Below, piece by piece: positions 9,770 to 24,838 of a DNA stretch of 40,659 nt. The position numbers and the translations under genes were made by a program. Source of the DNA: Bacteroidales bacterium. Lineage in GTDB: Bacteria > Bacteroidota > Bacteroidia > Bacteroidales > JAIPAP01. The notes beneath the pieces were generated by a model that made no database searches, was not told where the DNA came from, and was given only the letters and a program-made list of their open reading frames with translations. Where the stretch lies: assembly GCA_021740045.1 (NCBI GenBank), contig JAIPAP010000026.1, forward strand, positions 1 through 40,659. Reading direction: 5' to 3'. Every line of letters begins with the position of its first letter. The first letter of the stretch is position 1.

Positions 9770-9842
9770 GCCTCCTTAGCTCAGTTGGCAGAGCGATTCA
9801 CTCGTAATGAATAGGTCACCGGTTCAAGTCCGGTAGGAGGCT
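9770..9842 (+). tRNA. tRNA-Thr (anticodon CGT)
   Basis: The cloverleaf has acceptor GCCTCCT/AGGAGGC, anticodon stem ATTCA/TGAAT with loop CTCGTAA (anticodon CGT), and T arm ACCGG/CCGGT. CCA is not encoded. It lies 30 nt after tRNA-Pro. Its 3' end borders the decayed restriction-modification region, a typical place for integration. Confidence 0.97.
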
Positions 9843-9929
9843 CTGCGTGTTCTGAGAAGAAGGTAGAAAATATAAACCAGGTTTAAAGAACCGTCCCGCA
9901 TGGGGTGGGATGATTTGAGAGATTCTCCT

Positions 9930-10425
9930 TTCCAGACCCAATAGCTATCGGACTTACTGACGGGGTGACTTACTTGATTGTCACCTATGAATTCTTTAGC
10001 ATTGGTGATCTGTTCCGCGAGCTGATCATCCAGATCGGTGCGGTTGATAATGAGCACGATTGTTGGATTGGAAAGCAGCTTGCTCGGCATTAACAGGCGG
10101 GTCAGAAAAAGCATTGTGTAGCTTTTCCCGCTGCCGGTAGCACCAAAATAAGTGCCTCCGTTTCCGTCCCATCGGGCTTCTGATGTTCGATGATGTTTTA
10201 AAAGAGTTTCTTGGCACCGTAATATTGGGGGTAACGATAAAGTATCTTTTCATTCCTTTTTGAGCTGTCGGGCAGCAGAATAAAATTCCTGATGATATCG
10301 CGCAGACGGTTCTTGTCAAACATGCCCTTCATCATTGAATACAAAAAGTCGATGCCATCCACCTCTTTATCCTTGCCTTCTATTTTTTTGCCAGGCGTAA
10401 TAATACTTGCAAGGCGCAAAGAAAG
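9930..10425 (-). pseudogene. hsdR: Internal fragment of a type I restriction subunit (hsdR remnant)
   Basis: Three minus-strand pieces in changing frames join into a recognisable stretch of HsdR. First comes GIDFLYSMMKGMFDKNRL and YRYPQYYGAKKLF (10419-10198). The frame then meets a TAA where HsdR proteins normally have Glu (KLFENIIEHQ). After a frame change it continues as GGTYFGATGSGKSYTMLFL, which contains the Walker A box, and IVLIINRTDLDDQLAEQI. Homology fades around 9950. The N-terminal nuclease domain and most of the helicase are missing, so this cannot be functional. Confidence 0.8.
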
Positions 10426-10476: not shown

Positions 10477-11409
10477 TTATTGTCCATTATTGCCTTTTTT
10501 TTTGTCGGGATTAAATTTATCATTATCCCATTTTAGAGGATTGTTGATGATATATTCCGATATAATTTGATATGATTTTTCATTGCGTATAACGTGTTCC
10601 CAATAATTGCGTTGCCACAATTTGCCATCAAATGGTTGCCAATTTTTATTTTTTACCCCACGAATATATTCAACGGTTGTAATGGATTGAAATGCCCCAA
10701 CCATATCACCCAACGTTTTCGTAGGGGCAACCCCTTGTGGTTGCCCTTGATGATTTGTGTCATTGTTTTGGGTGACGTGATTATTTTGGGCAACCCCTTG
10801 TGGTTGCCTTTGATGATTTGTGTCATTGTTTTGGGTGACGTGGTTATTTTGGGCGACCCCTTGTGGTTGCCCTTTATGATTCGTGTCATTATTTTGGGTG
10901 ACGTGGTTATTTTGGGTGACCCCTTGTGGTTGCCCTTTATGATTCGTGTCATTGTTTTGGGTGATGTGATTATTTTGGGCGACCCCTTGTGGTTGCCCTT
11001 TATGATTTGTGTCATTGTTTTGGGTGATGTGGTTATTTTGGGCAACCCCTTGTGGTTGCCCTTGATGATTTGTATCATTGTTTTGGGTGACGTGGTTATT
11101 TTGGGCGACCACAATTTGGGCGACCACAAGGGTCGCCCCTACGATTTCCAATATGGCGTGGAAATGGTTGGGCATGATTATGTATTCATGCAATTGAATA
11201 TTTTTGAATCGTTCCGGCAATTTTAACCATTCGGTTGCTATCATTTGCCCTGCATCATTCAATGTCAATTCACCATTGACAATATTACCAAATAAACATT
11301 CACGGTGTTTAACACATATCGTAATAAAATACAATCCTGCCTGCGAATAATCATATCCTTTTAACCGGATAGATCTGCGATGGTGAATATTTGGATTGTA
11401 TTTGTTCAT
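10477..11409 (-). CDS. REP-associated tyrosine transposase (RAYT) with an in-frame REP-repeat insertion
   Basis: RAYTs are single-copy IS200/IS605-like HUH nucleases tied to REP palindromes. The 310-residue product has the expected N-terminal half (HHRRSIRLKGYDYSQAGLYF) with the HUH motif at His82/His84 (MPNHFHAIL) and a C-terminal half with the probable nucleophile Tyr286 (SEYIINNPLKW). Between them, residues 91-229 are not transposase: GATLVVAQ and then six 21-residue repeats of the type NNHVTQNNDTNHKGQPQGVAQ. That stretch is a translated array of REP palindromes. The start was placed at 11409 (MNKYNPN); the longer frame upstream only translates another REP. The gene sits between hsdS and hsdR fragments. 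Whether the enzyme tolerates the insertion is unknown. Confidence 0.85.
   Translation of the reverse strand: MNKYNPNIHHRRSIRLKGYDYSQAGLYFITICVKHRECLFGNIVNGELTLNDAGQMIATEWLKLPERFKNIQLHEYIIMPNHFHAILEIVGATLVVAQIVVAQNNHVTQNNDTNHQGQPQGVAQNNHITQNNDTNHKGQPQGVAQNNHITQNNDTNHKGQPQGVTQNNHVTQNNDTNHKGQPQGVAQNNHVTQNNDTNHQRQPQGVAQNNHVTQNNDTNHQGQPQGVAPTKTLGDMVGAFQSITTVEYIRGVKNKNWQPFDGKLWQRNYWEHVIRNEKSYQIISEYIINNPLKWDNDKFNPDKKKGNNGQ
10720..11144. repeat. BIME-like REP array inside the RAYT gene (63-bp tandem units)
   Basis: Six 63-bp units each contain a palindrome of the form GGGCAACC-CCTT-GTGGTTGCCC. The array is closed at both ends by REPs in opposite orientation, each carrying the outer tetranucleotide GTAG: one at 10721 on the plus strand, the other at 11119-11143 on the minus strand. 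GTAG plus hairpin is the known RAYT recognition layout. The unit length is a multiple of three and keeps the gene open. Confidence 0.88.
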
Positions 11410-11431: not shown

Positions 11432-11452
11432 GGATAACCACAAGGGTTGCCC
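11432..11452 (-). repeat. Isolated imperfect REP palindrome upstream of the RAYT
   Basis: The minus-strand sequence GGGCAACCCTTGTGGTTATC is a degenerate copy of the same REP, with two mismatches between its arms. It starts directly after the stop codon of the hsdS fragment and ends 22 nt before the RAYT start codon. Confidence 0.65.
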
Positions 11453-11545
11453 TTATAATACCCGCACTTCCCCACTCATCAACTCCGGTAGCAAGGTATC
11501 CCGCAGTTTTCCAAGGGTGCGGATTTGGTGGTCTAGCCCCCTATA
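11453..11545 (-). pseudogene. hsdS: C-terminal fragment of a type I specificity subunit (hsdS remnant)
   Basis: The minus-strand translation ends QIRTLGKLRDTLLPELMSGE followed by VRVL and a stop, which is the standard C-terminus of HsdS (LRDTLLPKLMSGEVRV). Upstream of about 11545 the similarity is lost, so only some 25-30 residues of the gene survive. Order and strand agree with an hsdS-hsdR operon into which the RAYT/REP unit was placed. Confidence 0.72.
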
Positions 11546-22467: not shown

Positions 22468-24705
22468 ATGAAAAATACCATCATGTCACAAAGCACCACA
22501 CAGAAATTCGGCACGGCACCGGTTTTCTTCACCGCTATTTCCACCATACTGGGCGCCATCTTATTCCTGCGATTTGGATTTGCAGTAGGCACCCTGGGAT
22601 TTTTCGGGGTTTTACTTATCATCCTGCTGGGTCACCTGGTAACCATCCCCACAGCCTTTGCCATTTCCGAAATTGCTACCAATCAGCGGGTGAAAGGCGG
22701 TGGTGAATATTTTATCATCTCCCGCTCGTTTGGGCTGAATATCGGGGCCACCATCGGCCTAGCGCTTTATTTATCGCAGGCTATCAGTGTGGCTTTTTAT
22801 GTTATTGCTTTTACCGAGGCCTTTTCACCATTTTTTAACTGGATGCAATCTGAACACGGTGTTCATCTACCCCGGCAAGTGATAAGCCTGCCGGCCATGG
22901 CTGTTTTATCCGTTTTAATATTGAAAAAAGGAGCTAACCTGGGTGTTAAGGTGCTTTATTTGATCGTAGCCATCCTGGTAGCTTCGCTGGTGTTGTTTTT
23001 TATGGGATCGACCGCTTTTTCCGAAACGGCCCGGGCCGGATTGCAGGAAAACCCGGTAAGGAACTTCGATCAATTCTATTTGGTACTTGCTATTATCTTC
23101 CCGGCTTTTACCGGAATGACGGCAGGAGTAGGCTTGTCGGGTGATCTGAAGAACCCCGGTAAATCCATTCCAATGGGAACGGTAACGGCAACCTTAGCCG
23201 GATTTGTAATCTATATCTTTATTGCCTGGAAGCTGATCAATTCGGCCGGCCCCGAAGATTTGGTTTCCGATCAACTCATCATGTCGAAGATCGCGGTAGG
23301 TGGACAATGGATCATTCCACTGGGGCTTGCTGCTTCCACTATTTCTTCGGCCATTGGATCGGTGATGGTGGCCCCGCGAACGCTACAGGCGCTCGGCCTC
23401 GACCGTGTGTTTCCTGCTGTTAGGATAAACCGTGCTTTAGCTAAAGGGCAAGCCAAAACAAACGAACCTTTTAACGCTACACTGGTTACCATCATCATTG
23501 CTTTTGTTTTTGTCGCCCTGGGGGATGTGGATGCCGTGGCCCGGATCATTTCCATGTTTTTTATGGTGACTTACGGCTCGCTCTGCCTGATCTCATTTTT
23601 GAACCACTTCGGGGCATCACCGGCTTACAGGCCCACCTTCCGTTCGCGCTGGTATGTTAGCCTTGTCGGCTTTGTTATGGCTATTTTCCTGATGTTCCGT
23701 ATCGACAGCCTGTATGCTGTGATCGCCATTGTTGCCATGACATTGATCTACCTGTTGAATTCCCATTACCATAAAAACCGGCGGGGATTGGAGTCCATCT
23801 TCAGCAGCGCCTTGTTCCAGCTTAACCGGAACCTGCAGGTATATCTTCAAAAGGCCCGCCGGCGCAGGCGCAAGGAAACCTGGCATCCTTCAGCCGTTTT
23901 GATCACCGATAGTTCCTGGGAACGGCAAAATGCATTCAACCTGTTGAGCTGGCTATCGTACCGCTATGGATTTGGAACCTATATTCATCTGATCAAAGGA
24001 TATCTTTCCAAATCAACCCATGAGGAATCGAAAAAGGTTTTACAGGAATTGATCGAAAAATCGGAAGAACTGGATAGCCAGGTGTATGTTGATACCCTTA
24101 TTTCTCCCTCTTATACTTCGGCCATTGCACAGATTATACAACTACCCGGAATTTCGGGTATGGAAAACAATCTGTTGCTGTTTGAATACGACAAACGCGA
24201 ACCTACCAACCTGTCGCAGATCGCCGAAAACTTCAGCCTGGCCCATGCAGCCAATTACGATGTATGTATATTGGGCAGTTCTGATAAGTACACCAATTTT
24301 AAGGAAGGTATCCATGTGTGGATCCAAAAGATCGATTTTAAAAACATCAACCTGATGATATTGCTCAGCTACATAATCCTTGGCCACCCCGACTGGCACA
24401 AGGGCAGCATTAAAATATTCTATGTGGCCGAAAAGGAAAAAATGGAGGAAGCGCACAACAAGCTTTCTGAGTTGATCGAAAGCGGGCGGCTCCCGATATC
24501 GAAGCGCAACATTGAAATGATCGAAATGGAAGCAGAACGCAGCATCCAATCAATGATCAATGAAAAATCGAGCCGGGCCGGCCTTACCATGATCGGTTTT
24601 CTGAGCGAGCAGATCAAACACGAAGGCCCCAAAATGTTCCAAGGCTACGATAAAATAGGTGATGTGCTGTTTGTGAATGCGGTGGTGGAGAAGGAGATAA
24701 AGTAG
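22468..24705 (+). CDS. SLC12-like APC-superfamily permease with C-terminal cytosolic domain
   Basis: The 745-residue product has about twelve hydrophobic segments in residues 12-430, beginning with the APC-type unwound helix stretch (ISTILGAILFLRFGFAVGTL) and including FPAFTGMTAGVGLSGDLKNP, the counterpart of helix TM6. After a basic linker (QKARRRRRKE) a soluble domain of about 270 residues follows, as in Na-K-Cl/K-Cl cotransporters. It probably carries cations with chloride, or amino acids; the sequence does not decide. The gene is divergent from the efflux operon and stands alone. An ATG nine codons downstream (MSQSTTQ) is a possible alternative start. Confidence 0.87.
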   Translation: MKNTIMSQSTTQKFGTAPVFFTAISTILGAILFLRFGFAVGTLGFFGVLLIILLGHLVTIPTAFAISEIATNQRVKGGGEYFIISRSFGLNIGATIGLALYLSQAISVAFYVIAFTEAFSPFFNWMQSEHGVHLPRQVISLPAMAVLSVLILKKGANLGVKVLYLIVAILVASLVLFFMGSTAFSETARAGLQENPVRNFDQFYLVLAIIFPAFTGMTAGVGLSGDLKNPGKSIPMGTVTATLAGFVIYIFIAWKLINSAGPEDLVSDQLIMSKIAVGGQWIIPLGLAASTISSAIGSVMVAPRTLQALGLDRVFPAVRINRALAKGQAKTNEPFNATLVTIIIAFVFVALGDVDAVARIISMFFMVTYGSLCLISFLNHFGASPAYRPTFRSRWYVSLVGFVMAIFLMFRIDSLYAVIAIVAMTLIYLLNSHYHKNRRGLESIFSSALFQLNRNLQVYLQKARRRRRKETWHPSAVLITDSSWERQNAFNLLSWLSYRYGFGTYIHLIKGYLSKSTHEESKKVLQELIEKSEELDSQVYVDTLISPSYTSAIAQIIQLPGISGMENNLLLFEYDKREPTNLSQIAENFSLAHAANYDVCILGSSDKYTNFKEGIHVWIQKIDFKNINLMILLSYIILGHPDWHKGSIKIFYVAEKEKMEEAHNKLSELIESGRLPISKRNIEMIEMEAERSIQSMINEKSSRAGLTMIGFLSEQIKHEGPKMFQGYDKIGDVLFVNAVVEKEIK

Positions 24706-24708
24706 TTG

Positions 24709-24838
24709 GTAGCTCGTAGTTGGTAGGGGGTAGGAGGTAGTTGGTAGTTCGTAGCGGGGCTGCCTGCTTTCATGGGGCGGGTAAATAGTTGGTTGAATGA
24801 TTGAATGAATGATTGATTGAATGGTTGATTGATGGCCT
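24709..24838. repeat. Simple repeats (GTAGTTGGTAG and ATTGAATG types)
   Basis: Two low-complexity tracts follow the permease: about 24709-24756 built from GGTAGTTCGTAG/GGTAGTTGGTAG words, and 24788-24838 built from GATTGAATG/GGTTGATTG words. The second type recurs as its complement at about 12155-12180 and 27585-27622. Confidence 0.7.

What the first reader, a model, noticed from the sequence alone, without database searches (positions are those of the whole stretch)
10720..11144. RAYT gene carries its own REP/BIME array in frame
Six 63-bp units, each with a REP palindrome, are bounded by two GTAG-bearing REPs in inverted orientation, and the whole array is translated as 21-residue repeats between the HUH and Tyr halves of the transposase. 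REPs are normally extragenic and are the presumed substrate of RAYTs. A transposase gene that holds a BIME of its own target inside its reading frame suggests self-insertion with frame maintenance, or autoregulation through the mRNA/DNA hairpins.
Basis: partly seen in the sequence, partly recalled or inferred. Interest (0 to 1): 0.75.

Follow-up and report, generated by a model that had tools for sequence, protein, structure and literature searches.

The report
Transposase gene carrying its own REP array
A bacterial REP-associated transposase gene carries an inverted pair of its presumed DNA target hairpins, blown up into a 63-base tandem array, inside its own reading frame; this habit is already described for its subfamily, but in this genome the matching hairpins of four types were found only inside such genes, which is unusual.

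Summary
A minus-strand RAYT gene (10477-11409) holds, in frame, a GTAG-hairpin at each end (11118-11142 minus, 10721-10746 plus) of a 6.1 x 63-bp array (10725-11110). The inner palindromes lack the GTAG foot, and the right-hand bounding REP is itself part of the last unit.

The insert is not a private accident. Of 76 further RAYTs from many phyla, 60 carry a GTAG-hairpin at this same site; synonymous-codon shuffles predict about 5 per side. The REPs lie in different reading frames and stem arms covary, so the DNA hairpin is the constant, not the peptide. This is the published hallmark of TnpA-REP subclass 2.4 (RAYT group 4; PMC6006769), whose motifs the window gene meets.

Not found in the papers I could read: in the window's 3.9-Mb genome, palindromes of four types sit in five RAYT genes, and whole-genome scans found no copy elsewhere. 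In 13 of 28 host genomes the in-gene copies were likewise the only ones. AlphaFold leaves the insert as a disordered loop on an intact HUH fold. The array is best read as tandem duplication seeded by REP arms, not six insertions. A cis role is inference.

The parts
10477..11409 (-). RAYT (TnpA_REP) gene, 310 aa from ATG MNKYNPN (ORF can be read 332 aa from GTG at 11475)
   Evidence: start shared with homologs
11158..11175 (-). HUH motif MPNHFH, residues 79-84
   Evidence: M79 P80 N81 H82 H84 invariant in 51-row alignment
11118..11142 (-). left REP GTAGGGGCGACCCTTGTGGTCGCCC, GTAG foot, in frame (VGATLVVA)
11100..11129 (-). 15-bp direct duplication (x2) of the left REP arm
10725..11110 (-). 63-bp x 6.1 tandem array, 21 aa per unit; each unit = spacer + right-type palindrome, without foot except the last
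10721..10746 (+). right REP GTAGGGGCAACCCCTTGTGGTTGCCC, inverted relative to the left one, GTAG foot (read as GQPQGVAPT on the gene strand)
10585..10617 (-). WQRNYWEHVIR: GTAG-reading residues W, Q, E, H, R (W94, Q95, E100, H101, R104 of E. coli TnpA_REP per PMC6006769)
   Evidence: (invariant or nearly so)
10537..10554 (-). catalytic Tyr motif YIINNP (Y286)
   Evidence: Y286 invariant; subclass motif YIxNNP
11432..11456 (-). decayed REP-like palindrome about 22 nt upstream of the start codon, foot lost (ATAA)
   Evidence: weak fold, z -1.1

Best explanation
The gene is a TnpA_REP of subclass 2.4 (RAYT group 4) that keeps an inverted pair of GTAG-REPs (a REPIN) in a permissive loop between the HUH strand and the Tyr side of the fold (the beta3-alphaC loop of PMC6006769). 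The pair was acquired long ago in the lineage, probably by RAYT-mediated insertion, and later re-set in other frames and stem types in some clades. Here the stretch between the feet was then amplified by tandem duplication using the shared REP arm GGTYGCCC, giving six 63-bp units. The DNA hairpins, not the peptide, are what is kept. The likeliest reason is a cis role: the enzyme keeps its GTAG-reading residues and would bind hairpins in its own gene. That would damp its own expression or activity, and/or let the gene travel with a ready substrate that can seed a new genome. Shown: anatomy, site conservation, frame differences, stem covariation, disordered loop in the model, no matching copy elsewhere in this genome. 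Inferred: origin by insertion, duplication mechanism, cis role.
For: 61 of 77 genes (window included) have a GTAG hairpin in this loop, 33 have both; synonymous shuffles expect 4.6 left and 3.2 right against 52 and 42 seen. Left REPs occur in 3 frames and right REPs in 3 frames, with at least 2 and 5 changes on the tree. Stem arms pair far better than shuffled arms: 10 distinct left arm pairs, 2.60 of 3 against 1.29, 0 of 2000 shuffles; right 5 of 2000. 33 of 77 genes have tandem arrays in the loop, all periods multiples of 3 (arrays with indels were left out of that list). The unit boundary in the window lies in the REP arm, and L032 has the same design at 30 bp. GTAG-reading residues are kept. 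The insert (about residues 90-232) is all coil at pLDDT about 41-53 while the core is 91-98; the fold matches IS200/IS605 transposases and 4ER8. The in-gene right REP of L056 is identical to the main REP repeated through that genome.
Against: No binding, cleavage or expression data. About a fifth of homologs have no detectable REP in the loop, so it is not essential. Inner palindromes of the window array decay without compensation. Shared ancestry inflates the covariation test, although distinct arm pairs were also tested. The homologs are the 80 best hits to one query, not a random sample.
Confidence: 0.6

Rival explanations
1. Neutral hitchhiker: the loop tolerates anything in frame, REPs land there from a genomic REP population and stay because in-frame loss is rare; arrays are plain minisatellite slippage. 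No cis function.
For: Loop is disordered and outside the fold; length varies freely (150-348 nt in 76 homologs, 558 here); inner palindromes decay; REPs are known in frame in unrelated genes (PMC3733652).
Against: GTAG hairpins are concentrated at one site of this gene, arms covary, and 13 of 28 genomes with an in-gene match to the strict pattern have no copy elsewhere to supply new ones.
Confidence: 0.3
2. Recent self-insertion of a genomic BIME array as a block.
For: GTAG feet face outward at both ends as in a REPIN; reading frame kept.
Against: No other copy of this REP in the genome; same site occupied across phyla; inner units lack feet.
Confidence: 0.06
3. An old protein domain whose codons happen to look like REPs.
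For: Left peptide VGATLVVA recurs in many homologs.
Against: The same hairpin is read in different frames giving unrelated peptides (VGADLRVCP, RGEPCVRP; SPLH, APT, RPYG); synonymous shuffles destroy it; no ordered structure.
Confidence: 0.04

Closest known systems
TnpA_REP subclass 2.4 (Quentin et al. 2018, PMC6006769) = RAYT group 4 of Bertels et al. 2017 (as mapped there)
   Same: HUH form NHFH, WQ, YIxNNP, REPs inserted in frame between HUH and Tyr motifs, variable-length loop with short repeats, double-foot REPs in paralogs
   Different: 63-bp x 6 array with footless inner palindromes, the longest insert of the 77 genes compared here; no extragenic copies of its REP found in the genome
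E. coli TnpA_REP (RAYT, PDB 4ER8) and its BIMEs
   Same: HUH/Y1 fold, GTAG-reading residues W, Q, E, H, R
   Different: E. coli belongs to subclass 2.2 and its REPs flank the gene; the REP-in-gene trait is reported as unique to subclass 2.4
Intragenic REPs of Rickettsia conorii and O. terrae (PMC3733652)
   Same: palindromic repeats read in frame inside genes
   Different: there the decorated genes are of many other kinds (repair, replication and others), not RAYTs
IS200/IS605 TnpA
   Same: fold and HUH/Tyr catalytic motifs
   Different: Y motif is Y---Q rather than YIxNNP; a mobile element with its own ends

Membership tests
TnpA_REP subclass 2.4 / RAYT group 4 | HUH as NH[IFV]H | tested here: met
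   MPNHFH, residues 79-84
TnpA_REP subclass 2.4 / RAYT group 4 | WQ and Y motif YIxNNP | tested here: met
   LWQRNYW, YIINNP (motif table)
TnpA_REP subclass 2.4 / RAYT group 4 | variable insertion between HUH strand and the following helix (beta3-alphaC) | tested here: met
   AlphaFold: strand 82-89, coil 90-232, helix 233-255
TnpA_REP subclass 2.4 / RAYT group 4 | REPs with GT[AG]G foot inserted in frame in the gene | tested here: met
TnpA_REP subclass 2.4 / RAYT group 4 | about 8-residue insertion at the end of alphaB | not tested
   no reference alignment of the subclass at hand
TnpA_REP subclass 2.4 / RAYT group 4 | REPs flanking the gene within 1 kb | tested here: inconclusive
   only a decayed, footless palindrome upstream at 11432-11456
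REP as usually defined (repetitive, extragenic) | many extragenic copies in the genome | tested here: not met
   only the in-gene copies in 3.9 Mb
Active RAYT | binds and cuts GTAG-hairpin single-stranded DNA | not testable with these tools
   GTAG-reading residues are conserved

The most novel reading that the evidence does not exclude
Gene-private REPs: in this genome and others, a RAYT is kept with its cognate hairpins only inside its own reading frame, so the pair works in cis as a self-contained enzyme-plus-substrate unit (autoregulator or portable seed of REP populations) rather than as the servant of a dispersed repeat family.
Probability: 0.35. Interest if true: 0.65.

Novelty: new member of a known kind. 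Interest (0 to 1): 0.42.

Why it matters
How RAYTs and REPs stay together, and what RAYTs do for their host, are open questions. Genes that carry their target hairpin in their own coding sequence, in genomes where no other copy was found, offer a system in which enzyme, substrate and any cis effect can be tested on one gene. The DNA-level conservation across reading frames argues that the hairpin itself, not the peptide, is what persists.

Tried and rejected
No relatives of the window's family are held, so sister strains could not be compared. Protein-domain reading of the insert: rejected. Plasmid search: only distant homologs below 60% identity. RNA fold of the whole insert gives z -10.8, but an inverted pair plus tandem repeats gives this by construction, so it is not used as evidence of function. 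The first protein alignment call failed because the L029 stretch holds a stop. Literature searches for RAYT autoregulation gave nothing.

Full report
What is there. On the minus strand, 10477-11409 encodes a 310-residue RAYT (ORF of 332 from an upstream GTG). NCBIfam REP_Tyr_transpos matches it in two stretches split by the insert; with the insert left out the match is one stretch, still under the curated cut-off (68 against 80 bits). Between the HUH motif and the Tyr motif lies a 422-nt insert from GTAG (11142) to CTAC (10721). It begins with a perfect GTAG hairpin, repeats a 15-bp arm once, then runs through six 63-bp units and ends in a second GTAG hairpin in inverted orientation. The inner palindromes lack the foot.

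Beyond chance. The palindrome pattern occurs 12 times in the window against 0.03 in shuffles. Both footed hairpins fold as single-stranded DNA far better than shuffles.

Homologs. A scan of genome contigs with a query from which the array was left out (about ten REP-coded residues remained in the query, none in the scan patterns) gave 352 relatives, of which the best 80 were kept. In 77 readable genes including the window, 61 have a GTAG hairpin in this same loop and 33 have both (stricter count). Permuting synonymous codons leaves 4.6 left and 3.2 right hairpins where 52 and 42 are observed. The peptides differ (VGATLVVA..GQPQGIAPT, VGADLRVCP..GEHTGSPLH, RGEPCVRP..KGDHKDRPYG) in part because the hairpin is read in different frames, with at least 2 (left) and 5 (right) frame changes on a core-domain tree. 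In a test that fixed the foot and spacing but not the inner arms, the inner arms pair far above shuffled arms.

Array. 33 of 77 genes have tandem arrays in the loop; every period is a multiple of three (only arrays without indels were listed). The window's is the longest: 558 nt from HUH to Tyr side against a median of 246 and a maximum of 348. The unit runs from the arm GGTCGCCC to the next GGTYGCCC, so a duplication between the like arms of the left and right REP would produce it. L032 shows the same design with 30-bp units. Among unit variants, five codon positions differ silently and four change the residue (the array end aside), none with a stop or frame break. The duplication mechanism is inference.

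Genome context. In the window's genome (3.9 Mb, 161 contigs, 97% complete) the palindrome occurs only in this gene, by four patterns with or without the foot and with up to three mismatches. The paralogous RAYTs on contigs 10, 104, 75 and 99 carry other palindromes in the same loop: GTAGAGACGCGATTAATCGCGTCTCTAC, GTAGAGGCAAGGCATGCCTTGCCTCTAC, and GGGACACGCCATGGCGTGTCCC in two of them. Each of these too is found nowhere else in the assembly. Over 40 host genomes, 28 have a match to the strict pattern inside the RAYT; 13 have none elsewhere, among them the named strains A. yeomjeoni, A. antarcticus, M. marinus and Sphingobacterium sp. T2, while 8 have ten or more. With a foot-free pattern all A. 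yeomjeoni matches still lie in the RAYT gene, one of them in its first codons; G010 and G013 show one or two further footless palindromes. In Rufibacter (L056) the in-gene right REP is the main genomic REP. The pattern could miss diverged REP types, so these numbers are for this pattern.

Structure. AlphaFold on 51 sequences gives a core at pLDDT 91-98 and the insert as coil at about 41-53; Foldseek finds IS200/IS605 transposases and RAYT 4ER8. The residues that read GTAG in E. coli (W, Q, E, H, R) are kept.

Known or new. Quentin et al. 2018 (PMC6006769) state that in subclass 2.4 REPs are inserted inside the tnpA_REP gene, in frame, between HuH and Y motifs, and model the loop as peripheral; all 100 RAYT group 4 sequences fall in that subclass. 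The window gene meets the tested motifs. So the core of the finding is known; the gene is a new, extreme member. The in-gene-only state of its REPs, and the frame and covariation evidence, go beyond what I found in that text; its supplements were not readable here.

Mechanism. Most likely an ancient REPIN in a permissive loop, kept for its DNA hairpins, here amplified by tandem duplication. Whether it serves autoregulation or carriage of substrate is open.

Noticed in passing
window 9824-10419 (-): Fragments of a helicase-like ORF (SWI2/SNF2 domain, 4e-05) in shifted frames next to the RAYT: probably a decayed type I restriction HsdR gene.
   Followed up: partly
own genome C10 (L008), C104 (L009), C75 (L007), C99 (L012): Four further RAYTs whose loops carry other palindromes (two double-foot GTAG...CTAC types, one 22-bp type shared by two genes), none found elsewhere in the assembly; L009 has three tandem partial copies.
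   Followed up: partly
L023 3024-3045: In Algoriphagus yeomjeoni a third REP-like palindrome lies in frame in the first codons of the RAYT gene, close to the start codon.
   Followed up: no
L094 about 2500-2950: A REP array with 52-bp spacing lies just upstream of this RAYT.
   Followed up: no
L021-L100, insert ends: Left and right in-gene REPs of one gene differ in stem sequence in a consistent way (for example GAC/GTC left, AAT/GTT right), reminiscent of the Y and Z REPs of E. coli BIMEs.
   Followed up: partly
window 24702-24833: Short tandem runs of GTAGTTG and TTGATTGAATGA.
   Followed up: no
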